From: Linyphia triangularis
Taxonomy: Eukaryota; Arthropoda; Arachnida; Araneae; Linyphiidae
Assembly: GCA_963978545.1 (NCBI GenBank)
Contig: OZ021732.1
Coordinates: 65,727,214-65,791,213, forward strand
DNA: 64,000 nucleotides
Direction: 5' to 3'
Shown: positions 3,270 through 44,700 of the stretch, piece by piece
Numbering within the stretch: the first letter of the stretch is position 1
How the letters are laid out: each line of letters opens with the position of its first letter
The notes under the pieces: model-generated
The model's input: the letters and a program-made list of their open reading frames with translations, nothing else
Database searches by the model: none
Told to the model about the DNA's origin: nothing
Program-made: the position numbers and the translations under genes

Positions 3270-3303
<34 letters not shown>

Positions 3304-3999: not shown

Positions 4000-4178
4000 C
4001 GGGTTGGTTGGTTGGTACGCTGAACGACATCTTTATGCATAGTAACGGTTTATCAGGACGGATCTACAGCTTAGGGGGATTCCGAACCACAACGAACATA
4101 CGCGCCTAACCCAGGATTCGAATTCACCGCCTTTGTCATGCGAGGTCAGAGAGCTAACCTAACAGCCATCAGATGGGC
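4000..4178 (-). mobile_element. Divergent tRNA-derived SINE variant
   Basis: The minus strand reads a tRNA-like head (A-box-like GGCTGTTAGGTTAGC, B-box-like GAATTCGAATCC) and ends in a CCAACCAACCAACC tail. It shares the tail and architecture with the other SINEs but not the body, so it is a different subfamily. Flanking GAAATATG/GAAATACG may be an eroded duplication. Confidence 0.65.
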
Positions 4179-4419
4179 GAAATACGATTTGGACACGCTA
4201 TGTATAGTTCGGTTGAGTTAGTATACTATGGTATGGTGTATTCTCGTCACCTGAAATATTAAAAAATATCGTTACTATTAAAAATTGTAGAACCAAGTTG
4301 CATTAAGCATTGTAATTGTGAGACAACTTTCCATTTAAAAGACAGTCTCTATCTCGCTATCAAGGTAGAAATGTCGGGTTAGATCCTTAATTTTCAATCA
4401 TTCCTCCCTTGTGCATTTG

Positions 4420-4506
4420 ACTTGACTCTCCATCAAACTCACTCGATCCTACAATTTGGCTCAGTATGGCCCTCGTGCCGTTAAACTTAAACCAACCAAC
4501 CAACCC
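4420..4506 (+). mobile_element. SINE 3'-end fragment
   Basis: The segment ends in AAACCAACCAACCAACC and contains GGCCCTCGTGCCG, matching the tail-proximal GGGCTATAATGCGCC/CACGAGGGC part of the full SINEs. No tRNA-like head was found, so it is 5'-truncated or decayed. Confidence 0.5.
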
Positions 4507-4837
4507 GATCATACAATCTTCCCCGCCCATATCAACTCTTTAAGTGCCATGAATATTTGGATGCAGGATAGTTTATCAACGATTATTTCACAAATAAAAC
4601 ATTAAATAACATATCAATAAAAAATAAAGGATTTTGCTGACAACTAACCCTAATACTAAGTTTCATCAACGACAAGAGAATACTAAATCAACAACTGAAG
4701 AATTTAGTGTAATTTTACGTCAAAAGCAGAAATACCAATACGATCAAATGACTTCTCTTCACATTAGTTAAAAGACTTACTTCTCCAATTCAGTTTTCAA
4801 ACCATATTTGAAGTTTAAAATAAGATGGCATTAAAAT

Positions 4838-5350
4838 AACTTATAAAAACAAAGTTTGCATTATAAATCCTTTATATGCATTGCCAATTTGTATATTCGT
4901 TAACACAGGAGCCGATTCTGTAAACAGCGTGTGCTTGGTATTTGCATCTAATTTTAAATATCAAAAGCACTTCTATCAGGAAAATGTGGGGCAAACTAAG
5001 TTTCAAAATTTATTTATGAAAATGTGTATTATGCTCTGCTGTAAAGCTGCATTTATTGTGCATTTATGCTCTCATATTCAAATATCACTTATTTATTCTT
5101 ATTAAAGTAATTTTTTATTTATTAAAAAAAAATCGGCAACAGGAAAAAGTTTCAACAATGGTCGGTTCAATGCTTTTTTTTAATACGATTGGATGGCGAT
5201 AAGTTAGTTTATTAGTATTCCATAAAAGCAACCTTTTAATAACAGTTACAACCGCAAAATTTGATAGAATGCATCGTCATCGACATCATCTGCTAAATTT
5301 CAGCCAGATTGGATGACAGCAAGGGGGTTAATTATTCATCCGCAGATTTG
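4838..5350 (-). repeat. Dispersed ~500-bp repeat, copy A
   Basis: Its reverse complement aligns by eye over its whole length with 35548-36048. Shared landmarks include TCTGCGGATG, GTCATCCAA, GGAATACTAATAAACTAAC, ACACGCTGTT(A/T)ACAGAATCGG and ATATAAAGGATT. The phrase GTCATCCAA..GC..GAAA occurs twice in each copy. No coding potential or TIRs recognised; the repeat class is unknown. Confidence 0.75.
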
Positions 5351-6059
5351 TCCTCCATCGAAAAACCACAAAATCGAAGTTAACATAAAGGATTTAAAAA
5401 TAAAAATTAAAAGTCGTAAATTTGGATGCATTTGGCAGCAAGAGTCCCGATATGGTTAGTAGAGCAAAAAATTATAAATAGACTAAAAAATACTAAATCA
5501 GTGAGTACTTACAAAAAAAGATCCTAATGCAATTGTTTTAAAGCTTCACTTTATATAATAAGTATTGTCCGAATATAACCGCATTGGAAAGGCGTTACTG
5601 TTTCATGTTGCAGAAATATTTTGAATTATTAAGGGTTTTTTTAATTTTAGCAGATCTATATTTTTGTACACTGAACGCGGTTGCAACAAGAAAAAAAGTT
5701 TCAACAAATCAAAATTTAAGTTGACAAGGGTGACCTTCACTTACCAGCCATGAAATCTTTTACAAGGGCAGAAGGCTCATACATTTTAATATTCAAAATA
5801 GACATGCCCAGGAAAAACAGTTTAATAGATGCTCATTTTATCGTGAATAATTTATTACTATGATGATCCTCACAATTCAGAATTACATTATTTATTATAA
5901 ATACTTTTCAACTACGGAAAGAGAAAATAAAGGGGAATAAAATATAAAAGTTGTTTTTTTTTTTTGTTTCTTTTAATTAGGAGATAAGGATTTCTTTTCT
6001 ATGGAAGTTTCTGAAATACACACGCACAGAAAGAAAAAGAAAAGGAATAGCAAATGTCA
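5351..6059. other. Right interior of the hAT-like element
   Basis: AT-rich with no coding region seen. GGTTGCAACAAGAAAAAAAGTTTCAACAA near 5680-5708 resembles part of the dispersed repeat at 4838-5350. Confidence 0.4.
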
Positions 6060-21458: not shown

Positions 21459-22056
21459 ACTTAAAAATCAGAAACAGCCAATATCTGAAAATTTAGTGAC
21501 AGTTATTGAGTAAATACAAAGGAAGATTTCAGAGATATTAATTACCTTTAGTCAAAGAACATTATTTAAAAAAAAAAAATTGAATTGTATAACATTTGTT
21601 CCTGTATAACCCAAGTTTATTGTTTAAATTTGTTTCTATGATATTTAAAATTAAACATTTAAGACGTAACAGTTTTAGCAGCATACTGAAATTACTAGAG
21701 TGTGACAACACTATCTTAACATCTCCTCAATGTAACAAAATGTATTAAAATTATAAAAATATAAGTTGTCATATATTTTCCTAAAAACTATTTATTCATT
21801 AAACAGTCAAATTAGAACTATCAAGTTCTTATAATGATCTAAAAGTTGGTGTAATCTCATTTAATGACTTTATTATAGCCTACTGGAATGTTCAACAAAC
21901 CAATCAACGCCAAAATGTATTCTGACATGGATGAAGATACTTACTCTCAGAAGTAGATTTCATCCTTTAAGTTTGAAATTATACTGCATATGGTAAAAGG
22001 GTATTATCGTCAAACGTAGTCGACAGTCTTGCAAATCTGAATAAACTATTTATAGT
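20904..22056. other. Intronic / flanking sequence
   Basis: Apart from UTP18 coding exon 1 (21396-21484 with its short leader) no gene or mobile element is supported here. Confidence 0.5.
21396..21458 (-). CDS. UTP18: UTP18 coding exon 1
   Basis: Starts MDTLPKQDLKNM and is Lys-rich (KRKKNS); 21 codons, donor TCG|GTAAAT, phase 0. The upstream TTTTCAG at 21485 would open this exon 26 bp before the ATG. Placed as the N-terminus because phases match the following exons. Confidence 0.65.
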
Positions 22057-22497
22057 CCAGTCATTCTAGAGTTAAACCTTGCACAAATTCCCATTGAGCT
22101 GAAATTTTGCAGAGTAGCTCTATTTGATGCCCTGAACAACCCACAAAAAGTCCCCTACTCCCCCTTTTTGGCTTCCTGGTTTTTTAGGTACTGGAATGCT
22201 GGGGCACTGGAGAAATGCTGGAGCAGCTGTTACACACAAATGGCTAGTCGCATTGAGCTCAAATGAAAGGTAAATAAATGGGTTTTAATTTAAATATAAA
22301 TTTGATATCATTCATTAACTTACAGATCGATAAAAGCTGTCAAAGTCGAAAAAGTTTGCATTTTTGACTACTTTTTCAATTTAAGTACTTCCATTTTTAA
22401 TAAATTATTTATACATTTTACATAAAACTATTCAACTCTTTTTTAGCTTTCTATACATATATAAATATTGCTTATGCAATAAATAGTTGCAGATATA
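22057..22497 (+). repeat. Left TIR of long-TIR element 1
   Basis: Inverted partner of 24637-25082. Internal landmarks shared by both arms: AAAAGTCCCCTACTC, GAAATGC.GGAGCAGCTGTTAC, ATTTGATATCATTCATTAAC and ATAAATATTGCTT(A/G)TGC. Confidence 0.92.
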
Positions 22498-22999
22498 TGA
22501 GTGTTTCAGTGAAACACTACCTCGTATTGGGAGTCTCATAATAAAGCGTGCAGTGTTTCACCCTGATCAAACCAAACACAATAACCACTTTCCTCAAGTC
22601 TTTTCCATTTAAGACCTGTTTTTAGACTAAAATACAATATCATATTACATAGATATGTAGATAAACATGTCAAACGCATCTTTAAGAAAAAATGTCTCTG
22701 AATAAATAATGTCTCTGAATAAATATTTTCATTAGAAATTTTAATTTTCAACCAATTACATATTGTTTGTATACAATAACTAATAATGCATAAAAAAAGC
22801 AATAACAATGTTTGTGGGATATAATTCTTACTATCCTCGTTATACAACTAGGAAAACTATTTTTTTTTTCTTTTAGAAGATATATATACATATTTTTACC
22901 TTTTTTGTCATTAAAGCAGAAATATTAGGCTACTTTCTTCATCAAATAGTATATTATCTATGAATTTGTTTTTTCACATCCCTCGGTATTATCCACAAA

Positions 23000-23850
23000 T
23001 ATTTGAGCATCAAAGTTCTGCTCTCTTGCAATCACATCTGCTACTCGAGTTGCAGTTACTCTTACAGTTGCAAGATATAATTTATAACAGTTCATCTGGA
23101 GAGGGAAGTAACATTGTAGGTTAAAGAACTAATTTGTCATTTAAGAGTTTCCATACCCATTTTGCAGTATCTAGAACATTTTTTAACCACTGTTGTATTT
23201 GATGGTAAACAAGAAGTGAATGATGACATACCGCAGATAACATTGGATGGAGAGTTTCTAATTTAAAAGTGGTGGTTAATGCACATTTGGCTATACCTCT
23301 GCTGTACATGTATATCCGTAACTCGTCAAGTGTTACCCAATTTTGGCTTTTGTGAAGTGTTACCATGAACTTTTCTCCTGTTTCTGCTATTTGATCACAA
23401 TCTGTTTCAACCAAATTAAAAATGTCCAGCATTTTCTTTATTTGAAAATTTTCAGATAAAATACTCCTTTCTTTTATTGTACAGAGCAGATGTTGTATCG
23501 CATCCAGTCATAAAATGGATTAAAAGTATATGGTTCTTCATATCTCCAATCTTTCTCTGTATACCTACAATATAGAACAATTTTGCAATTTTTGATCCGA
23601 CATTCGATACAAGGAGCATAATGTTTGCTTTATTTGGCATTCTAGAAACTAGCATTGTCAAAATATCACTGTCTGTAGCAACAACTGCCACCTTTCACTT
23701 ACATTTAGATTTTTTTTAAAGCAGTGGCAACAATTAAGGTATCAGCACCACCTCCAGCTTCTTTCACATCCACTCCTCCCTTTTCAAGACGAATTTGTAG
23801 TTGTTGTATGAGCATGGTTTAATTTCCACTATTTGACAGAAAATCTTCAT
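23000..23850 (-). pseudogene. PIN/FEN-like transposon-borne protein, C-terminal half (broken)
   Basis: Minus-strand frames, joined across stops and shifts, read in order as follows. First a Q-rich helix (IQQLQIRLEKGGVDVKEAGG), then ADTLIVATALK. Next comes AVVATDSDILTMLVSRMP, then HILLIHFMTGCDTTSALYNK. A 100-residue segment with a WKLLNDKLVL end follows. The last piece is a Cys-rich stretch (CNCKSNCNS..RCDCKRAEL.CSNIC). The spaced acidic motifs (ADTL, TDSDIL, GCDTTS) look like those of PIN/FEN nuclease folds. I recall this arrangement from repetitive uncharacterised proteins in arthropods and cnidarians; no function is proven. Upstream parts seen in element 2 are absent here. Confidence 0.65.
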
Positions 23851-24636
23851 GTTTGCATGTAACTATTTGTGTCATATACTATTATGTTCGCACATTCCCA
23901 TTTTCGTGCTCTTCGAATTTGTTCTTCATTAGTTGTAGGATCACCTTATCCTCAAAATATTTACGTGATGAACACAAGATGGGGGTAGCAAAATAATGCT
24001 ATCACTATCTATCAGACATTGAGACTGTATTTTTTAAAGCTTTTCGAATACTAGAGGGGCAAACATAACTTTTTCTATAAGCTACATGAACAATGAAACC
24101 ACTTTTGAAAATTTCCTTTAAATTATCATTTTATTGTAAGCTTGTAGTTTAAAGCGTTTCTGCAGCTTTTCTCCAATAGTCACTTTCAATGGGAATCCGC
24201 AGATTGTGCAATTTTCTCAGTACATTATTACCTTTGTGCAACAGTCTTTAAACAGGGTGTAATCTTAAGTTCTATTTTAACTAGCAGCAAAAAATCCCAA
24301 TGAAAAGGAAAAAAGCGATACTTTTCAATAAGCAATCAATAAATTGTCACAACGAACAGCGATATCAGCATTTAAAAAAAACAAAAAAAACGGACATTTG
24401 TGAAACTTCTTAAATCAATCCTGTTTCCCTCATTTCCGGTCAAAAGCATCCCCCAGGTTCTATCAGATTCCGCATGTTTTTTAATTTCACATCCTTTTTA
24501 GAAAGGTGGGAGCCAATTTTTGTGGCTAAATTGGTGTAATGATCTTTTAATTCCAAATGGGAATAGCCTCATTTAGTCTCGAGACACTTGATGGTCAAAT
24601 GAAAAGGGGAAAACTTGTATTGCATCACTTAAACCC

Positions 24637-25082
24637 TTGCATATCTGCAACTATTTATCGCACAAGCAATATTTATATACTTCTAGAAAGCTGAAAAAGA
24701 GTTGAATAGTTTTATGTCAAATGTGTAAATCATTTATTAAAAATTGAAGCGCTCAAATCGAAAAAGTAGAGAAAAATGCATGCTTTTTCGACTTTGGCAG
24801 GCTTTTATCGATTTGTAAGTTAATGAATGATATCAAATTTATATTTAAATTAAAGCCCATTTATTTACCTTTCATTTTAGCTCAATGCGACTAGCCGTTC
24901 GTGCGTAACAGCTGCTCCGGCATTTCTCCAGTGCCCCAGCACCTAAAAAACCAAGAAGCCGAAGGGGAAGAGTAGGGGACTTTTTGTGGGTTGCTTAAGG
25001 CATCAAATAGAGCTATCTGCAAAATTTCAGCTCAATGGGAATTTGTGCAAAGTTTGACCTATTTTTTGCCTAGAATGACTGG
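24637..25082 (-). repeat. Right TIR of long-TIR element 1
   Basis: Reverse complement of 22057-22497 with scattered mismatches and small indels, implying some age since insertion. Confidence 0.92.
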
Positions 25083-25563
25083 GGTATTACTGAAACTAAA
25101 AAAAATATTGCTCATTAACTGCACAAATAGAACATGCACTGTGGTTTAGTTTGAAAGAGCGCATCAAAAATGTTATAAAAATCTGTTATTCACATTGATC
25201 TGTTGAGAATGTATTACAAACTTTATAAATTTAAATAATAATTTAAAGTCAAAGACTAACAGCCGACTAATCCAGTAGTTCATATAATTAACTACCAACA
25301 AAAAGTTCACCAATGGTATAAACAGGATAAAATTAAAATTTATTAAAAATATATATCTGCCTGCCTGCATATCTGCTACTTTAAGCACTGACAAAAAGGA
25401 ACAGTCGGAAGTGAATGTATAAAAAATGCTCAAATGGACATAACAGCATAAAAAAATATTGAATTTTTTAACTCCTCAATTTTAGTTCTGAATTCTAACT
25501 TCTAAGCATTTACCACTTTTTTACTTTTAAAATGTTCTTATTTTTTTCAACTACATCCAAGTA

Positions 25564-25986
25564 ATGGCTAAATTACTCAATAGTAATGCAAACAGACAGT
25601 CCCGCTTTTCACCTGCTGTCCCACTGCCCGAATGTCCTGCTTTTTCGTTACAGAGTCCTTCCAAACAAAACAAAAATGTTCTTCTGCAGAACTTTGTTAA
25701 TCAAGAAAAACTAAAAGTGTGGGTAACTGATGAAGTTTCTGGAGGTGAAGGTTTCACTCATTTCCATCGGCACTCATATGAAAATGCCAATATTAAAAAA
25801 AATTTGAAATTTGACTCTAATTTGCCACGAACAACTACAACTGTGGCCGTTAAAAAGACATTTTATATTAATAAAATTTGGATTTCTGAGAAAACACAAC
25901 TTTCTATGGATACTTTGAAATTTTTATTAATAACTAAAATTAACTCTACATATACTTACAAAGAGTTTCAGGATTTCCTAAAATGA
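25564..25986 (+). pseudogene. hAT transposase C-terminal-like ORF fragment
   Basis: A 140-codon open frame ending at TGA. Its last 50 residues, LPRTTTTVAVKKTFYIN, then IWISEKTQLSMDTLKFLL, resemble the C-terminal dimerisation region of hAT transposases (the TT..VERSFS..K motif followed by L..E.L..L). The first ~90 residues are not recognised. The match is weak and partial; it could instead be a host exon or another element. Confidence 0.4.
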
Positions 25987-26622
25987 AACAAAAATTTCTT
26001 AAAGTCAATAGCCTCAAATAAGGAGTATATGTAAAGTATGGCTGAAAGTTAATAATAAAGTTAAATAAACATGTGAATCCCAATGTATATTGTAAATCAT
26101 TACGAAAAGGCCTCAAACATTGGAGATTTTAGGATTGTGTATTCCGAACCCCATAAATATAATATTAAAAACAAAGACCTTCACCATTGGCAGAGACATG
26201 TCCTGATTTTTAGTCAGAAAAATCTAGTCAAATTACTCAATGATTGATTCCTAGTTTGCAGTACGATCGGCATTTAGCAATAATTGTTAAGTGATACAGT
26301 TCAGAATTTAAATTTTTTAACCATAATCCATTAACTTTGCTTTCAATTTCTTATTATAGAAAAAAAAATGAAGAACTGTCTAGAATGTTATTTTCATTAA
26401 TAGTTTGAGAAATTCCATGCTAACATCAAGATTTTTTTTTACCCCTTCATTTGTTATTATTTCCTTCAATTGCTACAATACAAACACAATAAACAACTAA
26501 AGACTCAATGCCTTCTAGGTTGGTTTTAAGCATTAATAAAGTTTTCAAAAAAGAGAAGGAGTATTAGAGTAGCACTCGATAAAATTATTTAAGCATAAAA
26601 AAAAATTGTTTTATTAACATAC

Positions 26623-26890
26623 CTTGAATTGAAAGTTCTGTAACACAGTTCGGCACGTGTTGCTATTGTTTATTTGTTTGTCAGCTAAGTTCGGGCTGCT
26701 TATTTCTGCCATTACCAAGTCTTGCTGCTGCCACCATAGAGCAAATAATAGTATAAGAGGCGGCGTTTCCCATTGACCTTCATCAGAGAAAAACATTGCA
26801 TGTTTTGAGGCATCATGGGTAACATACTTCCAAAAGAAACAGCAAACGCCTTGCGTACTGTGTAAAATTTCGCATTTTAAAAATAGCGTT
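26623..26890 (-). promoter_or_regulatory. Candidate UTP18 5' UTR exon / promoter region
   Basis: The minus strand has a good donor CAAG|GTATGT at 26623-26618. The segment is richer in G+C and CpG than its surroundings. The acceptor ATTTTCAG at 21485 opens the first coding exon 26 bp before its ATG, so a 5.1-kb leader intron containing long-TIR element 1 is plausible. A 94-codon open frame across it is not recognised. Inference from splice signals only. Confidence 0.35.
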
Positions 26891-27009
26891 TTATCCACCT
26901 AATATATGAATAAATCTTATGAAAAAATTCACATATTTTCCTTAGAATGTATACATTATGCTGCATTAAGAAGAAAAGAAGAAAGTTTCGGATAATTTTA
27001 TTAAATTTG

Positions 27010-27121
27010 ACTTCAAGAAGTTCACCTATTTGGCCGTCGACGGGAAAGTGTGGGAGTTCTTCCAACACAATCTTCTCGCATCCGTGAAGGATCGTGGCCG
27101 TATCGTTCGCCTTACAATTCC
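27010..27121 (-). other. Exon-like, GC-richer segment
   Basis: On the minus strand an acceptor TATAATTTCACAG is followed by an open, CpG-containing stretch reading NCKANDTATILHGCEKIV, EELPHFPVDGQIGELLE. Base composition is unlike the AT-rich surroundings. I do not recognise the peptide. Could be an exon of a gene upstream of UTP18 or a UTP18 leader exon. Confidence 0.3.
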
Positions 27122-27984
27122 CTGTGAAATTATAAATTTGAATAAAGGAAAAAGTTTCGGCTCAACAGGTTTATTTATTTCTAACTATTCATTAAAATAA
27201 CAAAGAATCGTAATTTTATGCTTTTGAATAATATTTAAGAAATTCAAAAAGTGGTAGCATTACAAAAATTCATTATTAAAATTCTTTAAAAAACAACAAC
27301 AATGGCAACAAAACACATAAAATATTATCTCGATCTGTCTTCATGATGCAAACAAAAGTATCATATTTTTATTTGTTTTTTTAGATATTTTCAAAGGTAT
27401 TTAGTTCAGTTATGAAAGAATAAAAATAACCCATTAGCATGAATGTACACTGTTTATTAAAAAGAACTTTAAAATGTTATTTTACAGACGAACATATTCT
27501 TACTAAGTTCACCTTTCAATAATTACAAATAAAAAAAACTATTTATTACTAGATAATGAAAATTGAAAAATATTTAATAATGAAAATCTCATTATTTAAG
27601 TATCATAATGGTTATTCAAATAATTGGTTTAACAAATTTTTTTTTAAATATTGATTTACATTTTTTTTTTTTTTTTAAATCTTCCTTCCAAGACCAAGTT
27701 TTTATGTTGAAGCTTATAACACAGTAGAATAGCATGGCTTTGAAAAAGTGTAAAGAAAAATGTCATCTCTTATTTTGAATACGACTAAAATTAATGATAA
27801 TTGATAAAAGTTGATAATAGCAATTTCATAAAACTGAAATCCCATTTAACAATTAACAAATGTTCAAGAAATTGATTTTTTTCATTATCTTTCCAAAATT
27901 TTAACATATTGTTAATGCATAATATTTAGCACATAATTTTAATGTATGTTATAATAACTATATTGTAGGAATTGGACAGATGTA
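27122..27984. other. AT-rich intergenic sequence
   Basis: No gene, repeat or element recognised; poly(T) run at 27661-27676. Confidence 0.5.
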
Positions 27985-28450
27985 TAACATCCCAGATAGC
28001 ATGCAAGCTTACGAAAACCTTGTCATATGCTTGTCATTAGACTTGCAGTTCTAAGCTTGCCGAGTAACCCTCTAATAAAAGGGTTTGAAAAGGGCAGCCG
28101 TGAAAAGCTTGGAAAGTAACACCTTTCGAAAAGGATTTGTAAAGGGTCGAATTCCAGGGCATCAGCAACCCCCCCTTTTCGAAAGGGTAGGTAAAGGGTC
28201 GAATTCCAAAGGCTGCAGTCTTTCCCCTCTAATAAAAGGGTTCGAAAAGGGCAGCCGTGAAAAGCTTGGAAAGTAACACCTTTCGAAAAGGATATGTAAA
28301 GGGTCGAATTCCAGGGCATCAGCAACCCCCCCCCTTTTCGAAAGGGTAGGTAAAGGGTCGAATTCCAAAGGCTGCAGTCTTTCCCCTCCCCTTGCCGCAG
28401 ATCAGATAAGATCTCCCCCGTAAAACGTGTGTGACTAGACTTATCTTGCA
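27985..28450. repeat. Repeat island with near-perfect 157-bp tandem duplication
   Basis: Opens with ATCCCAGATAGCATGCAAGC (27989). Two ~157-bp units follow (28069-28225, 28226-28384), differing at only a few positions. Each contains AAAAGGGTT(T/C)GAAAAGGGC, ACACCTTTCGAAAAGGAT, GGTCGAATTCCAGGGC and CCCCCTTTTCGAAAGGGTAGG. The internal CTTTTCGAAAG palindromes could form hairpins. The mirrored motif ATGCTATCTGGGAT occurs at 41845, next to another array with AAAAGGTTTACACACCCTTT units, so both may belong to one unnamed element family. Confidence 0.7.
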
Positions 28451-29774
28451 ACCGGTTTTGAGTTTGGCATTCGAATGTTGGTTAAAGAGCTTGACCAAGA
28501 GCTTGACGGACACGGAAGATGAAATACTTTCATCTTTAATTCCCGCTGTAAAAACCGGTACGTACGTTGTTTTATAATTATAATTAATTAATTTTTTATC
28601 AATCTGCAATAATATTATTAAAACGGAAGCGTTGGAACGTTTTATCAAATTCTTAAAGAAATAGGCTTAATTAGTTGTTGACACATAGTAACGCAGCCTA
28701 GAAAACATTAACAATTTTTTCATAGACAAGTAACTTTTTTGTTTCTTCGAAAAGTTTTATGGGCCGAAAAAAAATCAGCTATTTTTGTGGCGAAAAGTTA
28801 TTGAATTGCGTTGGGGTAGAATTTTTTAAATAGTACATGCTTTGTTATAAACAATAGCTTAATTTCATAATTCACTCTGAGCGTAATTTTTACCTCCGTA
28901 ACACGTTTTTACGATACTACAATTTATAAATCTGTACTTAAGATAAACTACCAGGAGTGCAATGTTAAACACTAAATTGCATTTATGGGATCCCGCATTT
29001 TATGATAGTTTACTTCTGAGGTACAGAAATGTTCCTTACGTGCTGTAAGTTTAACATAATGAAATAAAATTTAGCCGTGTTTCACCAACATTCCCTTAAA
29101 TACAGACAGGGCAGCCGACAGGATTTTCGGCCCCTATGCAAATGTAACTCGGGCCCAATTACCCTCCCTCGCCCATATACACATATTAGCGTCGATACTA
29201 AAAAGATAATATCTCCACAGTTATTATAGCCACATTGCATTCAGGACATTTAACCTAAGAATAAGATGAAGCAATAAATGATTATACATTTTTTCATTGT
29301 TTGGGTAAACAAATACTAAACTTGCTGCGTATTCTCAAACCAGAAATATAGAGAAAACGAGAAAAAACAAAGATAAATTAGAGGAGTAAGATGAACTGAT
29401 AGCACTGTTCTCAAATACCAACTTAAAGTTAGCGGCCCCCTGGTACCTTCCCAGTCAAAATACAGATCAATCAGAATGCGCTATATGAGTGCGCCCATGA
29501 TGCGTCACAATTCCAATTGCATCGAGCTTTTGTTGACGTTCGTTGTTCTCTTGTCTCCGACTGAGGTAGACGGCAAATTTTGCTGTAAAATTTTACACAT
29601 GCGCGTGTTGCTAAAACGACCTTTGCTTTTTATACACTTGATTGGAAAAACCCGAGTTCGATTTCATCCAAAACGAAGAAAAAAATTGATGTGAAAAATC
29701 GAGAATTTAAAAAAGAATGAATTAAATCGTATGCGTTAATTAACACCAAATTTGGACAGCTGACTTGTCTCATT
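28451..29774. other. Intergenic; possible eroded hAT end
   Basis: CAGGGCAGCCGACAGGATTT at 29107-29126 looks like a hAT left end, but no matching right end or TSD was found. A CpG-containing block at 29470-29690 with a short open frame is unrecognised. Otherwise AT-rich. Confidence 0.35.
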
Positions 29775-31214
<1,440 letters not shown>

Positions 31215-31222
31215 GTCTCATC

Positions 31223-32480
31223 TGCCATGATTTTTATACTATAAAAATGTTCGTTGTTAAAAACTCGTATTTCCGCTCTTTAAATGTACTGCGATTCTGA
31301 TGATTATTGAATGTTTGGCTCTTTGCACAGAAACGTCTGCCGAACCCTGGTAAATGTAAAAAAGGTTTTGGTAATAGAAATAGTACACCAGCGTTAATTG
31401 GGTGCTCTCATGATATGTTTTGGCTTTATAAAATACTGTAATACAGCCTCTAAAAAAAATTATCTCAATAATATTCATTTCTAAACATTAAAATACAAGA
31501 ATTAAAATAAATTATTGTTTTAATTTTTTCGTTTCAATAAAAGTTAAAATGTCCTTATGTGTACTGATTTTTAAGAAAATAGTTTGTTAAAACATCTTGT
31601 GAAATGCATATCGTCTTCCATTTATTTATTCCTAGTAAGAGGTTACATTTTTCGAAAGCTATTTTATTGGCTTATTTAGGTAGAAAAATGAAGAGGCAAA
31701 CTCCCATACGCTAGAAAATATTTCCAACTGGTAGTTTTTGTAAGAAAGAAAAGCAACGAAGAGACATTTTGGAAACTTTCGAAAACAGCATTTTAGATTA
31801 TGTGACCTTTATTTAAACAGTTTAAGGTCTCAATTAAATTCATTTCATGGTATTCGAGGTTATTGCATATTCAACATAATAGGCCAAGAAATACATATAA
31901 ACTTATAAATCAGCATACTAAAATATCGTATTTTCTAGACAAACTAGAAAGGATAGGACAAAAACAATATAAAGATTTTTTTTTTTTTAAGTTTTAAATT
32001 TTAAAATAAAATTTCAATTATAAAAGTTTGCTGTCGATTAATCGAGTACTACAATTTTACAGAATTTTCTGATATTTTAGAAAAACTTATTAAATAACTA
32101 ATGATTATTAGATAATTTTTATTTCAAGGCAAAATTTTCAAACAAATCAATGTATTGGATTTCAAAACAATTACGTATTTACCATTTTAACAATTTTACG
32201 GACATTTTTAAAAAAAGCAGTATAAAAAAAAAAAAGATTTTTTTTTCTTTCTTTCCCCCCCCCCCCCCCCCCAATAGTATTACTTAAGGGTAAAATAATC
32301 AAAAGGGTAAAATAATATCATAAGGGCCTAACATTTTACAAAACGTTGCCTGCAAATTGAACCAGGTAGTTCTCAAATATTAAAAAATTTCTACATAAAT
32401 TACAAACACAATGAATTAATAATCATTTTAGATATGCATTAATTTCTGGTGATACGTTCTTACATAAGTAATGAATTTAT
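31223..32480. other. AT-rich intergenic sequence
   Basis: No genes seen. A C16 run lies at 32257-32272 after a T-rich stretch. Confidence 0.5.
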
Positions 32481-32492
32481 CATTTCCTTATT

Positions 32493-32671
32493 GCTTGGTT
32501 GTTTTCAGATTATCTGGCGCCTTCAGCAACACGAGGGCTATAATGCGCCGAAACATTCGTCATTAGACAAGCCAACATACATTTACCAACACCCATGCCT
32601 AACACGGGACTCAAACAAGCAGCCTCGCGGTCTATAAGCTTGCACTCTAAACACTATACCGTTTGGTCGGC
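32493..32671 (-). mobile_element. tRNA-derived SINE, copy 2
   Basis: Same family as 2287-2464. The minus strand has the GCCGACCAAACGGTATAGTG head, a B box degraded to GTTTGAGTCC, and the AACCAA tail. Flanked by CATTTCCTTATT (32481-32492) and CATTTCCTTTT (32672-32682), an imperfect duplication. Confidence 0.9.
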
Positions 32672-32682
32672 CATTTCCTTTT

Positions 32683-34615
32683 TAAATCAATGAATAATAT
32701 AAATACCATTTACCCAAATAAAAAATGCTTTTGAGAATGTAAACTTGGTATTTTGAAAAATAATTATTTAAACTTTAAATAAATAAATCTTTAAACAAAT
32801 TACTTTTATTGGTATCGATAGCTAGCTTTTGAAATTAGTTTTAAAAAAATTCAATTTTAAATGTATAAATTCTAAATCTTGACACACATACTAAAATTAA
32901 ATGTTACTCTGAACTCATACATTCTTATCAATCGTATATTGCAAGCCCACTTTAAGGACACTCCGGTGCATCCCCAAGGCATGTCTGGTCTTTTGTCAAA
33001 GAGCAGACATGCAGCATGTGTGGCCAATTAACCAATTTCCCAAGGCTATAACGCTGTTGTATGGTATTGACAGATACACCGAGCCCAACTGCTTCTTGGT
33101 TTGCGGGGCGGGGGTTAGAAATAGAGGAGGTGCTTTTCTCCATCTGAAGTTAAAAAAAAAAAATTCGGTACCTTTTGTCTTTTTGTTTTGTTGTATGGAT
33201 CCAATAAATTTTAAAATTTTTTAGTAAAACAAGATATCGCGGGTTCTTCTTGACAAGCCCTTCTTTGTTTTTATTTAAATTTTATTTTAGTTACTGTGTT
33301 TTTAATTTTGGCGAATTTTCTAATCGCCAAATGTCCTATGCTACATCTGTTCCAATGTCCCTTTCAAACTCTGTTTAAAATACATTTTCCAATATTTCTC
33401 AGAAAATTTGCGTTCCACAACTCAAAAGATCTGACTGCAAAATGCTGAAACCCAACTCAAAGCTATCTCCTGAAGTTTGAGGTAAGCTTTTTTTTTTTTA
33501 CTTTTGTAATTTTTAATCAAATGTGCGTAGTGTTAAAAACAATGAATTCTTCTGCTAGTCGCTTTCCTGGTAACCTTGTTGACCAGCTCTTCAAGAACTA
33601 CTTCATTATTTTCTGTTGTTTATTTTATTACTTTTTCATGTTTTTTTAGTATTATGGAGTGAAATTATAATTTTTCTAATGTTTATTTTTATTTAGTCAC
33701 CATTTTTTTTAGTGTGTTTATAGGCTATTTTCTTGTAGAGCAGTCTCAATCTTTAAAATTTTATTTTATTATTTCATTTGATTATTAATTTTTTGCAGTC
33801 ACATTTTAGAATTGGAGGATCAGTACTTCTACTACACTTTTTTAGTAGTATTATAGTTACTCACTATTTAGTTTTTTTCTTTGGTTTTCTGAAAGAAAAA
33901 AAAAGACTTTTGTCTGCTCTTGCCATATTCATGTAACGCCTTAAAAAACTGAACATTTGATCATAATAGGAAAGAGGGTTGGGCAGCTAATATTAAAAAA
34001 TAATAAAACTAGTTATAAATTTAAATTACTCACTTTTTAACATAATGAAAGGAAATTTAAAACTGCAGTGTTTCACAACTATTCTGTTAAGGTATTGAAA
34101 AACAAATAATCTTACAATTCTACATTATAACGAAAAGAACATTTAATAAACATTAGTGCCGTTTCTAAAACACAACTTAAGCATGTGTTATTAAAAAAAC
34201 GTAAGCATGAATGTTATAAATAAAATCAATGTAAACACATAATACAAACAACGCAAGAAGTAACATGTTAAAAAATCAACGCTGGTGTATACAGTGAAAT
34301 TTATTAAATGTTAAATATTGTTATGATATAATGTAAACACTGTCTATTGGTGTATTCTAAATCCCCTAAACAAGGCAATTTCATTGGCTACCGAAACCAA
34401 ATTTTTATGTTGTTGTGAATTGACAAAAAGTGCCAGTCTGTTCAACCTTGTTTTGCTCATAGAATTTCTTAATATGATGTTAATGATCACAAAGTTGAAA
34501 GCTCAGAAGTTTCAATTGAAACTGGTAAAATACATTTTTTTTTTTTTTTATTAAGTGACGTATATTCGGAAATATGTCTACAGAACATTCTGCGAAAGCA
34601 TCAAGAAAACCTTTC
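32683..34615. other. Intergenic
   Basis: A less AT-rich patch at 32945-33145 has open frames on both strands, neither recognised. The rest is AT/T-rich without supported features. Confidence 0.45.
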
Positions 34616-34829
34616 TACAGGGTTACTACAAAAGAATCATTCATTTTCAAAACAAGATTTATTCAAAAGTATTATACTTTTGAATAAATCGGGTAAACTT
34701 GAGCACCACCTGGAGCATAAAACTTAAATATTTTGCGGTTGTTTTCTTGTACCAATCATATGTGTAAGTATAATACTTTTGAATAAGTCGGGTTTTGAAA
34801 ATGAATGATTCTTTTCTAGTTACCCTGTA
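34616..34829. mobile_element. Hairpin MITE, 214 bp (Tc1/mariner type)
   Basis: Almost the whole element is a palindrome. Arms of ~65 bp begin TACAGGG(T)TACTA, include AAAGAATCATTCATTTTCAA and end AAAAGTATTATAC. The terminal TA dinucleotides fit TA target duplication. The transcript would form a long stem. Confidence 0.88.
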
Positions 34830-35547
34830 TTTTGTTTTCCATATTTCCTAATCTGCTTCGATGATGTTTTGAAAACCAAGAAAACCTCTTTCATAAAATT
34901 TTACCAGATTTTCTATGGCAGATTTGTATTATTGGTATCAGGAAGGAGAAGTCTTTGTGTCTACGCATGCTCTTTCAGGGAATCAGTAAGTTTTCTCTGC
35001 TCTGACCATCTGAAGGACGTCATGACCCCAGCATATAGAAATGAGAAAGAAATGTAAAATCGGAAGAGTTTGAAATGAAATAGATGTGCTTGTATTTTTG
35101 TGTTCATTTCTCGTTGTTATAGTTATTTTGAAAAAATGACTGACTCGAAAAGTTAGTTAAATGAGGATATTAAGTATTAACTATTTACAAAAATTGTTAC
35201 ATTACACTTGGAAATATAATTTTTCTCAATTTTCAGGGAGCTGTAGCCCTATCAGCCTCCTCCCTGTATACGCCACGGACTTCATATGGCTAAGCAATCC
35301 TACGTAAGTAGAATCCTTTATTTGTTCTGATCTTCAATACCAAATTATTAATCGTGGTGAAACAGGGAGTGTTAAACTTTTATCGAGCGAGGGGAGTACT
35401 TTCATTTCACCTAAAATTATAAAATAGCATTTAAGAAAAATCGAATATTTCAATAACGTACGTATTAGAGGCATTAAAGTTTCAATAAAGGATGTATTTT
35501 GAATTCTTTAAATTAACTTCGATTTTGTGTGAGTGTCGATAGAGTGC
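34830..35547. other. Intergenic; eroded hAT right end
   Basis: GGAGCTGTAGCCCTATCAGC with CCTCCCTGTATACGCCACGG (35238-35279) resembles the right end of the hAT at 52735-53685 (GGGGGCTGCAGCCCCATCAGC). No left partner was found. Confidence 0.4.
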
Positions 35548-36048
35548 AAGTCTGCGGATGCTTAATTAACCCACCTTGCCGTCATCCAAGCGGGCTGAAA
35601 GTTGGTAGATAGATTCGATGTCGATGGCAATACATTCTTTCACATTTTGGGGCTGTTATTGTCACTAAAAAGTTGCTTATACGGAATACTAATAAACTAA
35701 CTTGCCTTCATCCAATCGCGCTAAAATAGCAGTAAGCCGATCATTGTTGAAACTCTTTGATATTGCCAAATTTTTTTTAAATAAATAAATAATAAAATTG
35801 TTTTAATCAAAATAAAAAAAAAAAAAGATGTTTGGATGTGAATGCATAAATGCACGTTCATTTCTAATAAATACATTTTGAAACGTAGTTTGCAACACAT
35901 TTTGCTGATATAAATGTGTTTGATATTTAAAATTAGATACAAGCACCAAGCCACACGCTGTTAACAGAATCGGCGCTGTGTTAATGAATATAAAAATTGG
36001 CGATGTATATAAAGGATTAATATTTAAAACTTTGTTTTCATGGGTTAT
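35548..36048 (+). repeat. Dispersed ~500-bp repeat, copy B
   Basis: Homologous over its length to the reverse complement of 4838-5350; shared landmarks are given there. Not flanked by visible TIRs or TSDs. Confidence 0.75.
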
Positions 36049-36589
36049 ATAATTATGTCTCGCGAAAAAAAAAAGAATAACGTCATTTGAAAATGAGTCA
36101 AAAATTCACAAATATTTGAGTTCGCAGCTGTATGCGACTAAAACAATTTATAGAGGGATCTGTCTTGACGAAATAATTAATTTCTTCAAGAAGTTTAGCT
36201 AAATATTATAATTTTATTTAACAATATCAATAGCATGGTTTATTTCATATGTATTTAAAGTTTTGCGAACCAAAACGCAAATTATTTTGTAAAACTTGGC
36301 AATTCTCTAGTAAAAGTTCCCGCGCGGAAAGAGTTTCTACTAAATGTCCCATGCAAAAGAAAGAAAAAAAAATTCGCCACAAGACTCTGCTTCTCGGAGT
36401 TGACAGGAGTGAACTGCCCCCTATAAATCAACACCACAGGAGGTGAGGAAGCTGACCAGACCCCCCAAACCTCGAAGATCCCAAAACGCCCGAAACCGCC
36501 CGAGAATCCTCTGCAGAACAAATAGTTCTCGGGCGCTGTAGGTTTCAGGGGGTTAAGATTATTTTAACACGTATTTGTGGAAAGCAAAA
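36049..36589. other. Intergenic, with GC-richer block
   Basis: 36315-36550 is C-rich and CpG-containing (CCCGAAACCGCCCGAG, TTCTCGGGCGC) and has no recognised coding frame. Confidence 0.4.
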
Positions 36590-37570
36590 TTAGAAAGCCA
36601 AAACTATTTATGTTGAAACTTTCAAAGCTCTAGGCCTATTAGAAGTCGCTTTTTGTTAAAAAAAAAAATAATAATTCAAAGAATCAATCGAAAATCAAAT
36701 TAAAATTTTAACATTCTGTTTGTCAATAGTCCAATTAGAATGCCAAAACTACTTGTATTGAAAATTTCAGAACTGTAGCCCAAATAGAAATCGTTTTGTA
36801 AAATATTTTTTAATTAATTAAAAAAGAACTAAATAAAAATGTAAAATTATGTTTTTCAAACGTCCAATTAGGAGGGCACAACTACTTATGTTGAAAATTT
36901 CAGAGCTGCAGCTCTATTAGATATCGTTTTGTTAAATATATATTAATAAATTAAAAAAAAAAAAAAAATAATAATAATAATAATAATAATAATAATTAAA
37001 AAGGAACTAAATAAAAATTTGAAACTCTGTTTTTCAAAAAAAGGCCAAATAAAAGACAAAACTACTTATGTTGAAAATTTCAGAGCTGTAGCAATATTGG
37101 ATATCATTTTGTAGAATAGTTATTAATTAATTAAATAAAAAGAACTAAATAAAAAATTAAAATTCCGTTTTTTAAAAGTCCAATTAGAAGGCTAAATCTA
37201 CTTATGTTGAAAATTTCAGAGCTGTAGCTCTATTAGAAACCGTTTTGTAAAATATTTATTAATTAATTAAAGAAAAAACTAACAACAAATTTAAAATTCT
37301 TTTTTTCAATAGTTCAATAAGAAGGCCAAAATTACTTATGTTGAAAATTTCAGAGCTGTATCTCTATTTGAAGTCACTTTGTAAAATAAAAGTTAGTTAA
37401 AATATTAATTAAAAAAGAACTAATTAAAATTTTACATTCTGTTTGACATTCATAAATTAGAAGGTCAAAACTTCTTGTGTTGAAAATTTCAGAGCTCTAC
37501 TCCAATTTTAAGTAGGTTTCTATAACAGATCCACAAACAGACAGACACACAGCTTGTTTTATTATTATAG
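36590..37570. repeat. ~140-bp tandem array, ~7 diverged units
   Basis: Each unit contains CCAATTAGAAGGCCAAAACT, TTATGTTGAAAATTTCAGAG, CTGTAGCTCTATTAGA.ATCG and an AATTAATTAAAAAAGAACTA AT-spacer. Units start near 36600, 36735, 36875, 37055, 37190, 37325 and 37460; one holds an (AAT)n expansion (36968-36996). The array ends in ACAGACAGACACACAG followed by TTTTATTATTATAGAT. Single diverged units with the same terminal phrase occur at 49740-49860 and 50100-50280. Confidence 0.8.
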
Positions 37571-38220
37571 ATTTTAAATTTGTTTATTTTTTTCAGATAG
37601 AAATGAATGGGATTCCCTTTAGTTTTCCTCAAGAATATTCCAGAAACTTCTTGTCAGATGCAGCAAATAAATGAAGAAATATTTGTAGTATATATTTAAA
37701 ATCATGTTTAAATTATATTCTTTGTATAAAATGAAAAAGCAACTCATTTGTGTTTGTTTACTTCAAAATAAAGAATTATCTAAAAAAGAATTATCAGTAA
37801 AAATGCATTTTTAGTTGTATATGTTTCTAATAATAAAACTATAAGTAGCTTGGATTAACCCTTTAAAACAAATTTTAATGCAATTTAAATTGTCTAACGC
37901 AACCTACTAAGATCTCAATGCATTTTTTTAATAATATATACATAATTTTTTATTGAATTTTGAATCTTTATTTTTTTTAAAATTCTTTACAAAAAAAAGT
38001 AAATTATGTTTATTATTCTAGTAAGTTCTACCTAGCAAATAAATTAAATTTATCAATAAATTGGGTTATGATTGATACCATTAAAGGCAAATTGTAATTA
38101 AATTCCTATAGAATAAATATTAATTTTTCATTAGCCACTAAATTTAAAGCATTTTCCGACAATATTGGAACTCTCCCAATTAAGTGTTTCTTTTTGAACA
38201 CAAAAGATAAATGATACTTT
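37571..38220. other. AT-rich intergenic sequence
   Basis: Nothing recognised. Confidence 0.5.
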
Positions 38221-38664
38221 TAGTCTAAGAGCCCATGGCCGGCTACCTGTTTGTATTTGACCAGACCTGAGTTTTTGTACGTTAAGGCCCCTATACCTAT
38301 CATTCATAAGTAGGGGACTCACTAAGCTCAAAGTGGTGGACACGTCGAGCGCTCAGGTAAGACAGGTATCGATTTTTGACTAATTTTAAATCCATTTGAC
38401 CACGTCTGCCGTTTTAAAATTTGAAAATATATTATTATTACTATCGGAAAATAAGAATGGCAGACCATTATCGCGCATTTTACTTTGTGGCAGACAATTT
38501 TGAAAATGCTAAAAAAAAAAAAATTTTGAAAGTATTTGACCAGATCTGCCATTGATATATTTTATTTATTATAGTCTTAAAAACTTATATTGAACACGGC
38601 AGACGTCTACATTGCGTACACACATCAACAAATAATAAAATCTTAGCTACTATCCGGCCAGATG
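38221..38664 (+). repeat. Left TIR of long-TIR element 2
   Basis: 444 bp. Contains ACGTTAAGGCCCCTATACC, AAGTAGGGGACTCACTAAGC and, repeatedly, the phrases TTTGACCA.(A/G)TCTGCC and GGCAGAC, spaced about 60-90 bp apart. These are candidate transposase-binding repeats. Confidence 0.95.
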
Positions 38665-38777
38665 TATATGTATTCCGTTCGCTGTTTTACATCAATGTAA
38701 TTTACTTTATCACTGTATTTAGAGAAATTAAAAATTTTTCGTATTCTATATACTAAACTTCATTAGTTAGATGAGAA

Positions 38778-40706
38778 TTAATTAATATTAATCGGAGTTA
38801 AGTATGAAATTAATTGTTGTGGAGTATCATCTGTCATTATTTTACTGTTAAAACCAGTCCACATAGGAGTATTTAACAACCTAAAAGCATGACTTAGCAT
38901 CCAAATATTGTCAATTCGATCGTAAAGACTCTTATGCACAATTATATTAACTTCTTCCTCACTTTGAATTTCAATATTGCTAGTTTTTTTGAGTTTTTTA
39001 GCACACTGTGGCAACTCATACTGTATTGTTTCAAAAGATCGTCTTCTACGTTTATTTTTTTTAATAACTCCAGCTTCTTCTTCTTCTATTTCTTCTACAT
39101 TTTCATTTTCGATGTTTTGATATATGATTCCAACTGTATCATGGAGAGTGTCTTTTCCATTCTTGGTCTCAACAAATCGGTCATAATTATCAAATGCCAT
39201 ACCTGTCGAAAGATTTTCATTTCTATTAATTGCCTCTGGACATATTCCGGTGCGTAAAACTGATGAAAACGTTGCTTCTGTTTCAAGCTCTTCGATAGCA
39301 CTGTAACTAATACAATGACCGTAACGATTTATTATATCGATTACCTTCCGACTGCTTGTAAGACTTTTTAATGTCATGCCTAAGCAGATGTGTTTCGAAG
39401 TCTTAATGTTGCCATTGTGACTCATGTAAATTACGTCCTGTGACAGAGATTTCACGTGACGTTGAAAACTGTCACAATTCCGGAGTTTACGACTATAACC
39501 TCCAAGAATTGATGAAAAAAACTCGGAAACCATTGGTGGTGTTGAACATTCACCTTTGATTAGTCGTTGACTAGTTATATAATCAGGTAATTTCTTTTTT
39601 TGTATACCCAGAATCTCCTCTCTCAAAATGGCGGCGGCTGCTTGCAAAGTGTCTTGGTCTTTCAAGTGCGCAAATAACGATTCATCAATAGTTGAAATGC
39701 CTCTAGGGCAACAACTTTTTTTTTATTAGATATCAAAATTTGGATTTTATCATTAAATTTTCTGTGAATTTTTTCTTCTAAATAGTGTGTTGTGAATATT
39801 GATGTACTGTCCGAGCCTTCACTCAATTCTTTAAACATATCGAGATACTCTTTATGTAAGTATGTTAAAAAATAACAACGTCCTCGTTTTATTACATTTT
39901 CTTCAATTAAATTGCATATTTCTTTATAAACAGTATCATGTATTTCTCGAGAGATATGCCACGAAGTACGGACAGGACTTTTTATTAATGATCTTTTTCG
40001 AATTCTAAAATTTTGCCGGCAAACATCATGATAATAAATGTTACAAGAGAGAACACTTTGTATTTTTGTCAAAGTTTCATTGTAAATTTCAGTATCTGGC
40101 TTAAAGTTTGATAAAATACTTTTTTCAAATTGATCTTTTTCTGAAGTTCGTAATGGCTCATTCTTAGACCGATTTTGTTTCTTTTTTTTATTACAAAAAA
40201 AAACACAAATTCAGGTTGGCTGCAGCCACGGTATCAGAAGTCTGAGTATTCGATAATTCTGCTGAATCTTCAGATGGTCCTTCCTTCAACGGCTGATGTA
40301 CTTCAGCCTCGATATCTTTTTCCATGTCATCATGTGTCTCAGGAACGTTCACATCTTCTATAAGAGAATCATTCATCATTGTTTCATCAACTATTGTGCT
40401 ACTAGCTGATGCCGATGGTTGTTCAATTGAAGGCAAAGAAATACTAGATTGCGATGAAAAAATTTTCGTGATATCTGTAGAATTTTTTTTTTTTCAGCGC
40501 TGTAAACGTCTTGTAACAACTACTATGATAAGCACAATCAAAAATTTCGTCTGGTAGAATAATTTCTTTATATTTTAATTTATGAAGTTTCCGTAACCTT
40601 AAAATCTTTCGACATTTTGCCATTATCTCTTCCGAAAATATAAGTAATTTCTCAGTTTTTACATTGGCACAAAAACACGCTTCACTTTTTCTTTATCAAT
40701 CGACAT
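38778..40706 (-). pseudogene. PIN-like transposon-borne protein, N-terminal and central part (frameshifted)
   Basis: Joined frames read as follows. First a Cys/His segment (CFCANVKTEKLLIFSEEIM, then YHSSCYKTFTALKKK; ~40690-40490). Next a Ser/Glu-rich linker (40436-40191) and a second Cys/His segment (LNLCFFCNKK near 40205-40185, then CNIYYHDVCRQNF near 40046-40010). Then helical sequence, AAAAILREEI, and PPMVSEFFSSILGG. The last block is HICLGMTLKSLTSSRKVID, RYGHCISYSAIEELETEATF and GMAFDNYDRFVETKNGKDTL. It ends at a stop after a basic KKNKRRRR patch. Shifts lie at A/T-runs (39717-39724, ~40185-40200, 40485-40500). The central block is one I recall from repetitive arthropod proteins whose C-terminus carries the TGCDTTS region kept in element 1. 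Molecular function unknown. Confidence 0.65.
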
Positions 40707-41002
40707 AATGTCAGATATATATGACAAATAATAGACAAATGAAGAAAATAAAATAAAGCAGCACTATGTATTTTATAAAATTCACGAAACACGAGGTATC
40801 TGTATGAACGTTCACAAATATACTGAAAACATCAGGCATTAGCCGTTACGTTGGGGTTGTTACAAGGCCCTTCCAGGTATAAACCCTCCATTATTCGAAT
40901 GCTAGTAATATAACTGTAAGAGAACATACTATAGGTTAGAATGAGTACAATAGTAATACATAGGAAAAAGAAGAGAGATAGCTGTATAAAATCTGTGCCA
41001 AC

Positions 41003-41446
41003 CATCTGGCCGGATAGTAGCTAAGATTTTATTATTTGTTGATGTGTGTACGCAATGTAGACGTCTGCCGTGTTCAATATAAGTTTTTAAGACTATAATA
41101 AATAAAATATATCAATGGCAGATCTGGTCAAATACTTTCAAATTTTATTTTTTTTTAGCATTTTCAAAATTGTCTACCACAAAGTAAAATGCGCGATAAT
41201 GGTCTGCCATTCTTATTTTCCGATAGTAATAATAATATATTTTCAAATTTTAAAACGGCAGACGTGGTCAAATGGATTTAAAATTAGTCAAAAATCGATA
41301 CCTGTCTTACCTGAGCGCTCGACGCGTCCACCACTTTGAGCTTAGTGAGTCCCCTACTTATGTATGGTAGGTATAGGGGCCTTAAAGTACAAAAACTCAG
41401 GTCTGGTCAAATACATACAGGTAGCCGGCCATGGGCTCTTAGACTA
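41003..41446 (-). repeat. Right TIR of long-TIR element 2
   Basis: Reverse complement of 38221-38664 with very few differences. Confidence 0.95.
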
Positions 41447-41860
41447 TTTATAAAGGAAAGTTTTTGCAACCTTTCCTATATCTACAGGGTGGGAACCTCA
41501 GAGTGAAAAGGTTTACACACCCTTTACAGTGAAAACCTTTTGGCAAGCCTATTATGAAAAGGCTTATACAACCCTTACGGCAAAAACCGTGTGGCAGGCT
41601 TATCACGAAAAGGTTTACACACCCTTTACGGCGAAAACCTTGTGACAAGCTCATCCCGAAAAGGTTTACATACCCTTTACGGCGAAAGCCTTGTGGCAAA
41701 GGGGGTCATGAAATGGTTACCAAAAGCTTGACGTCTGGAGACTAGGACCCTTTCTTCAAGGTTTTATGATGGTTACTCCCTTGTCATCTGAACCTTACTC
41801 CCTTTTCGCTTGAGAGGTTTAGACAAGGGTTTTAAAAGGATAAAATGCTATCTGGGATAA
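41447..41860. repeat. 51-bp tandem array (4 units) and adjoining AAGG-rich segment
   Basis: Units of 51 bp (41501-41704): GAAAAGGTTTACACACCCTT, TACGGCGAAAACCTTGTG, then a variable end. Because 51 is a multiple of three, both strands stay open (17-residue repeats such as QGFRRKGYVNLF on the minus strand), but nothing suggests a gene. The segment ends with ATGCTATCTGGGAT (41845), mirroring the start of the repeat island at 27989. Confidence 0.75.
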
Positions 41861-44423: not shown

Positions 44424-44700
44424 ATGTGGATTCTCTCTCTGGCGAACCGATGTACGGCTTCCAAACGTGCCTGCAGATCATCTAGATACTGGACAGGCGA
44501 GGAAGGAGTGTCCGGTGGTCGTCCAAAGTGGAGGTTGCAGGAGAGCCTAAGGTCTCTTCCGAACATCTTTAGCGATGGAGAAAATCCGGTGGTCTCGTGA
44601 GTTGCACTCCCAAATGCCAACAGAAGCGATAAAAGTTTTTGAACCTCGACTTGTTGGTTGCAGGACTTTGAGATTGGTTGTTGAGCAGAAAACGTGGGTT
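44424..44700 (-). pseudogene. Integrase fragment (Gypsy), right of the hAT insertion
   Basis: Reads LLSLLLAFGSATHETTGFSP, LKMFGRDLRLSCNLHFGRP and ARLEAVHRFARERIHIL, the segment after the catalytic domain in Gypsy integrases. It joins 42775 in phase once the hAT and one TSD are subtracted. The deletion breakpoint with the gag-protease ORF lies near 44690-44740. Confidence 0.8.

What the first reader, a model, noticed from the sequence alone, without database searches (positions are those of the whole stretch)
22057..41446. Two long-TIR elements carry complementary parts of one PIN-like protein family
Elements 22057-25082 and 38221-41446 have ~445-bp inverted termini of the same size but unrelated sequence. 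Both carry minus-strand remnants that I place in one repetitive protein family. Element 2 has the N-terminal Cys/His segments plus the CLGMTLKSLT...GHCISY block. Element 1 has ADTLIVATALK, ATDSDIL, TGCDTTSALY and a Cys-rich tail. The TIRs suggest this family travels on DNA transposons, and the acidic motifs suggest a PIN/FEN-like nuclease. No standard DDE transposase is visible in either, so the protein itself could be the mobility enzyme, or cargo.
Basis: partly seen in the sequence, partly recalled or inferred. Interest (0 to 1): 0.88.

Follow-up and report, generated by a model that had tools for sequence, protein, structure and literature searches.

The report
Deletion copies of transposase-nuclease transposons
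Two shortened jumping genes in this genome carry opposite ends of one long protein type that is predicted to join a DNA-cutting transposase to a flap-type nuclease; one of them is a deletion copy of a 6.2-kb element found elsewhere in the same genome, and both likely belong to an already named transposon group (Academ), so this is mostly a known kind of thing.

Summary
The two elements are real: E1 22053-25086 (TIRs about 469 bp, 91% identical) and E2 38221-41446 (TIRs 444 bp, 98%). Their TIRs are unrelated in sequence, but both start TAGTC and both sit between perfect 3-bp duplications (TTA; TTT). E2 is an internal-deletion copy: three 6.2-kb elements elsewhere in the genome have the same TIRs, 3-bp TSDs and about 3.0 kb more interior; E2 lacks roughly the C-terminal two thirds of their gene. 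Full-length relatives are single polypeptides of about 1340-1670 aa: Cys/His modules, a predicted RNase-H/DDE transposase core (nearest folds Hermes, RAG, Transib), then a FEN1/EXO1/XPG-type nuclease with its acidic residues conserved. E1 carries nuclease and Cys-rich tail of a second, distant clade of the same superfamily. Architecture and 3-bp TSD fit AcademX as summarised in a passage of PMC10045372; no Academ sequence was available, so membership is likely, not shown. Novelty: new members of a known kind.

The parts
22050..22052 (.). E1 target-site duplication, left copy (TTA)
   Evidence: 14 of 16 E1 copies with both ends readable have a perfect 3-bp TSD (21 examined, 5 dropped)
22053..22520 (+). 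E1 left TIR (about 468 bp; begins TAGTCCAGTC)
22955..23120 (-). E1 remnant of the Cys-rich C-terminal tail (CNCKSNC...RCDCKRAEL.CSNICG); limits approximate
   Evidence: reading; nine cysteines of this tail invariant in the 8 clade-B relatives aligned
23124..23507 (-). E1 remnant of the region after the nuclease (...LDELRIYMYSRG...VYHQIQQWL...W.WK)
   Evidence: clade-B profile E=4e-25
23455..23694 (-). E1 remnant of FEN/XPG-type nuclease (TDSDIL ... TGCDTTSALY)
   Evidence: clade-B profile 4e-17; clade-A profile 3e-8
23708..23818 (-). E1 remnant of nuclease motif ADTLIVATAL
   Evidence: clade-B profile 1e-6
24617..25086 (-). E1 right TIR (ends ...GACTGGGGTA)
25087..25089 (.). E1 target-site duplication, right copy (TTA)
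38218..38220 (.). E2 target-site duplication, left copy (TTT)
   Evidence: 11 of 11 E2-lineage copies with both ends read have a perfect 3-bp TSD
38221..38664 (+). E2 left TIR (444 bp; begins TAGTCTAAGAGCCC)
38783..38788 (.). E2 internal-deletion junction (element positions about 564/567; about 3.0 kb of the 6.2-kb form missing; AT-rich joint)
   Evidence: same junction string in 6 of 8 E2-type copies, not found by that exact string in the other 2
38781..39722 (-). E2 remnant: region before and into the predicted DDE core; ends before the second Asp
   Evidence: clade-A profile 1e-118
39180..39203 (-). first Asp motif of the predicted DDE core (GMAFDNYD)
   Evidence: second Asp of the motif 20 of 20, first Asp 18 of 20 in sampled relatives
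39665..40210 (-). E2 remnant: second Cys/His module (FFCNKKKK...YYHDVC)
   Evidence: clade-A profile 2e-32
40447..40692 (-). E2 remnant: first Cys/His module (CFC...YHSSCYKTFTALKKK)
   Evidence: clade-A profile 1.2e-3; frame break at the A-run next to it
41003..41446 (-). E2 right TIR
41447..41449 (.). E2 target-site duplication, right copy (TTT)

Best explanation
E1 and E2 are internally shortened DNA transposons (for E1 the shortening is inferred) that carry opposite ends of a long protein which in relatives is a single chain, predicted to combine a DDE (RNase-H fold) transposase with a FEN1/EXO1/XPG-type 5' nuclease, and they were likely moved in trans by the proteins of full-length elements. 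Shown by sequence: TIR pairs, TAG...TA ends, 3-bp TSDs, and that E2 is a deletion form of a 6.2-kb element with the same TIRs in the same genome. Supported by sequence profile and predicted structure: one polypeptide with Cys/His modules, DDE-like core and FEN-like domain, in two clades (E2 = clade A; E1 = clade B, with a Cys-rich tail). That E1 is likewise a deletion form of a longer element is inferred from its relatives; its full-length partner was not found. Inferred and untested: the Cys/His modules bind TIR DNA, the DDE core cuts and joins the ends with a 3-bp stagger, and the FEN-like domain trims a 5' strand, flap or hairpin during excision or gap repair. Likely filing: Academ superfamily, AcademX lineage.
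Confidence: 0.85

Rival explanations
1. The FEN/XPG-type nuclease is the mobility enzyme and the rest is accessory.
For: The nuclease keeps its acidic residues in the 20 sampled relatives (19 at the last position, one gap) and is in the same chain as the rest in the full-length relatives read.
Against: The upstream core has DDE-type topology and conserved D, D, E with Hermes/RAG/Transib as best structural rows; fixed 3-bp TSDs and precise ends are what a DDE strand-transfer enzyme leaves (general knowledge), and FEN-family enzymes are not known to join DNA (recalled).
Confidence: 0.05
2. The nuclease protein is cargo or a host gene captured by two elements; the TIRs are incidental.
For: E1 and E2 TIRs are unrelated in sequence. 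For other clade-A copies in the genome (for example L029, L030) no inverted repeat was seen in the stretch held, which ends 1.5 kb from the match.
Against: Six of six long E2-lineage copies (L031-L036) carry E2 TIR sequence at one or both ends; the protein recurs as many copies in this genome and in arthropods and a cnidarian; core and nuclease are one chain.
Confidence: 0.05
3. The superfamily is not Academ but an unnamed DDE superfamily with a fused FEN nuclease.
For: No Academ sequence could be compared; the AcademH paper was not held; Pfam offers only DUF6589.
Against: A nuclease-bearing lineage with 3- or 4-bp TSDs is how AcademX is summarised in PMC10045372 (passage), and Academ is listed among superfamilies with a DDD/E transposase in PMC9587614 (passage); that its nuclease is called XPG is recalled.
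Confidence: 0.25
4. E1 and E2 are complementary halves of one split or two-component element.
For: E2 keeps the N-terminal part, E1 the C-terminal part; both remnants are on the minus strand.
Against: E2's own long partner encodes its own nuclease; E1's remnant is clade B with a Cys-rich tail not seen in the clade-A proteins looked at; E1 copies are 87-91% identical to the window copy (old) while E2 copies differ by 0.5-0.8% from their majority (recent).
Confidence: 0.02

Closest known systems
Academ superfamily, AcademX lineage (Repbase)
   Same: DDD/E transposase (passage of PMC9587614), nuclease, 3- or 4-bp TSDs (passage of PMC10045372); here 3-bp TSD and a predicted DDE core plus FEN/XPG-type nuclease in one chain.
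   Different: No reference sequence could be compared. Long TIRs (444 and about 469 bp), TAGTC starts and two distant clades are what this locus adds; whether Repbase already lists them is unknown.
AcademH
   Same: Same superfamily by name; transposase with an extra DNA-processing enzyme.
   Different: Encodes a helicase and makes 9- or 10-bp TSDs; here 3-bp TSDs and no helicase family above cut-off in the 11 long proteins scanned (a Pox_D5 match at E 0.14 in P0138 is below cut-off).
hAT (Hermes), RAG, Transib DDE transposases
   Same: Best structural rows for the predicted core; RNase-H fold with a large helical insertion before the Glu helix.
   Different: 7-10% sequence identity in those structural alignments; no fused FEN-type nuclease is known in them (recalled); hAT makes 8-bp and Transib 5-bp TSDs (recalled).
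FEN1/EXO1/XPG 5' nuclease family
   Same: Fold and acidic residues.
   Different: Here it is the C-terminal part of a transposon protein, followed in clade B by a nine-cysteine tail.

Membership tests
Academ, AcademX lineage | DDD/E transposase | tested here: met
Academ, AcademX lineage | Nuclease (XPG type; that name is recalled) encoded with the transposase | tested here: met
Academ, AcademX lineage | TSD of 3 or 4 bp | tested here: met
   3 bp: 11 of 11 E2-lineage copies with both ends read; 14 of 16 E1 copies (shuffled pairing mean 2.6, maximum 9 in 10,000).
Academ, AcademX lineage | Sequence homology of the transposase to Repbase Academ proteins | not testable with these tools
   No Repbase/Dfam library; AcademH paper not held.
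AcademH | Helicase domain and 9-10 bp TSD | tested here: not met
   3-bp TSDs; no helicase family above cut-off in 11 proteins scanned.
hAT | 8-bp TSD (recalled) | tested here: not met
   3-bp TSDs.
FEN1/EXO1/XPG nuclease family | PIN-like fold with the acidic metal-site residues | tested here: met
   predicted structure
FEN1/EXO1/XPG nuclease family | 5' flap or exonuclease activity | not testable with these tools
   needs biochemistry

The most novel reading that the evidence does not exclude
A transposase that carries both catalysts of a two-step strand reaction in one chain: a Hermes/RAG-like DDE core that cuts and joins the 3' strand, and a fused FEN/EXO1-type nuclease that processes the 5' strand (flap, overhang or hairpin), so that excision and gap repair do not depend on host FEN1/EXO1/XPG; an old animal design with two distant clades, each spawning swarms of deletion copies.
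Probability: 0.35. Interest if true: 0.65.

Novelty: new member of a known kind. Interest (0 to 1): 0.35.

Why it matters
It removes a puzzle (a nuclease travelling without a transposase) and replaces it with a testable enzyme: a single chain with a predicted DDE core and a FEN-type nuclease, found in many arthropods and in a cnidarian; where the listed hits bear a name it is 'uncharacterized', 'hypothetical' or 'unnamed'. The recent E2 copies and their 6.2-kb partners give a concrete system to ask why a transposase needs its own 5' nuclease. It also shows how deletion copies can mislead about what moves an element.

Tried and rejected
Pfam scan of six window ORFs: nothing above cut-off. PDB search with E2's 314-aa ORF: one chance-level match, E 0.8; with the clade-A profile: no match; only the clade-B profile reached EXO1. 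Foldseek alone found no confident relative of the DDE model. A tblastn hit at 44675-44866 (E 9e-5, 26%) was read as an alignment and taken as chance; not followed further. A consensus of 19 E1 copies did not open the frame further. DUF6589 (PF20231): above cut-off in 1 of 11 long proteins (P0113), weaker in five other clade-A proteins and one clade-B protein; no paper in the library names it. Papers: nine searches; no held paper has both 'Academ' and 'XPG' as whole words. That says nothing about subscription papers or Repbase Reports. Full-length E1 partner in the genome: asked for, never answered. Count of E2 TIRs in the genome: asked for, never answered.
Full report
What is in the sequence. 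Two inverted-repeat elements are present. E2 is 38221-41446 with 444-bp arms, 436 of 444 bases identical; E1 is 22053-25086 with arms of about 468/470 bp, 412 of 453 aligned bases identical. E2 begins TAGTCTAAG and ends CTTAGACTA. Apart from TAGTC the two TIRs are unrelated. The flanking bases are TTA/TTA for E1 and TTT/TTT for E2.

Copies in the same genome. The genome is 1.35 Gb in 369 contigs and unnamed. E1's left 501 bp gave 597 first-look candidates, of which 40 were scored; the 39 other than the window copy are 87-91% identical to it, so this is an old and large family. I fetched 20 of these 39, taken from the top of the list. Of 21 E1 copies examined (20 plus the window), 16 had both ends; 14 of the 16 have a perfect 3-bp TSD, against a mean of 2.6 (maximum 9 in 10,000) when right flanks are shuffled among copies; L018 and L021 do not, and 5 were dropped because the right end was not found. 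E1's 80-aa nuclease remnant alone gave 150 scored matches in the genome. E2-type copies are recent: eight (window plus L050-L056) differ by 0.5-0.8% from their majority and all eight have perfect 3-bp TSDs. Of the ten loci fetched the other three were not counted: L049 is interrupted and one end lies outside; L057 shows only a distant DNA match to E2 and L058 none.

E2 is a deletion form. A search of the genome with a relative's protein (P0048) gave 60 matches (46 of 445 candidates scored), with open frames up to 1492 aa. Of the 20 loci it returned, six (L031-L036) align to E2 at 93-99% in DNA on both sides of a large gap and carry E2 TIR sequence at one or both ends; a seventh, L040, matches only E2's right-end 654 bp and TIR. 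In the three for which both ends were read (C10, C15, C3) the element is 6208-6245 bp, bounded by E2's TIRs and by perfect TSDs ATA, GAA and ATA. E2 matches both sides of these elements and lacks one block of about 3.0 kb between element positions 564 and 567. C12 has about 500 bp of unrelated sequence near one end and its outer end was not fetched; L035 and L036 have one complete TIR in the DNA held; these three were left out of the TSD count. Because the gene runs on the minus strand, the deletion removes roughly its C-terminal two thirds. The long frames of C10, C15 and C12 reach the nuclease; that of C3 breaks before it. None of L031-L036 shows one unbroken frame including the first Cys/His module.

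The protein. The E2 remnant found 57 relatives; those with an organism name are arthropods. A longer relative (P0049) found 237, of which 120 were listed, many 1400-1670 aa, again mostly arthropods where named, plus one filed under a bacterial MAG (P0138), possibly contamination. E1's remnant, searched so that full-length proteins were eligible, found 8, four of them 1341-1506 aa, among them one from the octocoral Dendronephthya gigantea. Reading these shows one layout: Cys/His modules, a conserved block ending in (F)DN.D...G..T.H, then TYD/TFD, G.FH, LEQ/IEQ, then DG, FD, K..E..R, ADT, D.D and GCD...GK. The E1-type proteins end in a nine-cysteine tail, invariant in the 8 aligned; I saw none in the clade-A tails printed. 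The two sets align over 1183 columns (hhalign E 1.8e-90), so E1 and E2 belong to one superfamily but to two distant clades; E1 is 21-35% identical to clade-A proteins in partial alignments.

How it most likely works. Predicted: the protein of a full-length element binds TIRs through its Cys/His modules, the DDE core cuts at the TAG ends and joins to target DNA with a 3-bp stagger, and the FEN-type domain removes a 5' strand, flap or hairpin during excision or gap filling. E1 and E2 would be moved in trans, since they keep TIRs but lack a complete gene; the shared deletion junction (6 of 8 by exact string) and low divergence of E2-type copies, each with its own TSD, agree with this. None of the enzymatic steps was tested.

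What it is called. A passage of PMC10045372 states that in the Academ superfamily AcademH makes 9- or 10-bp TSDs and AcademX 3- or 4-bp TSDs, and that the difference seems related to the helicase and the nuclease they encode; a passage of PMC9587614 lists Academ among superfamilies with a DDD/E transposase. The elements here have a nuclease and 3-bp TSDs, and no helicase family was matched above cut-off. I therefore file them as likely AcademX; the sequence test could not be made, because no Academ reference and not the AcademH paper itself were available.

Verdict on the finding. A good observation, right about the nuclease, wrong about the absence of a transposase. Its own refutation test is met for E2 as far as prediction goes. 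The result is two new members of what is probably a known kind.

Noticed in passing
window 40480-40500: In E2 the first Cys/His module and the rest of the gene are separated by a frame break at an A-run, and the longest frames of the 6.2-kb-type copies L032 and L034 begin at the same place; inherited, or a slippage or splice site.
   Followed up: partly
window 36588-37525: Array of about 135-bp repeats, 67-86% alike.
   Followed up: no
window 30437-30688: Nearly perfect palindrome with arms over 100 bp and no spacer.
   Followed up: no
window 41504-41707: Four copies of a 51-bp repeat just beyond E2's right end.
   Followed up: no
L049 (G000:C5:13279000-13286000), about 3160-5631: An E2-type copy interrupted by about 2.5 kb of other sequence; E2 positions 1523-1530 are matched on both sides, a possible 8-bp duplication.
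   Followed up: no
P0008 and P0001 against E2: Proteins 83% (spider Trichonephila, 35% of the query) and 76% (wasp Microctonus, 66% of the query) identical to E2's product; across such distant hosts this hints at horizontal transfer, not tested.
   Followed up: no
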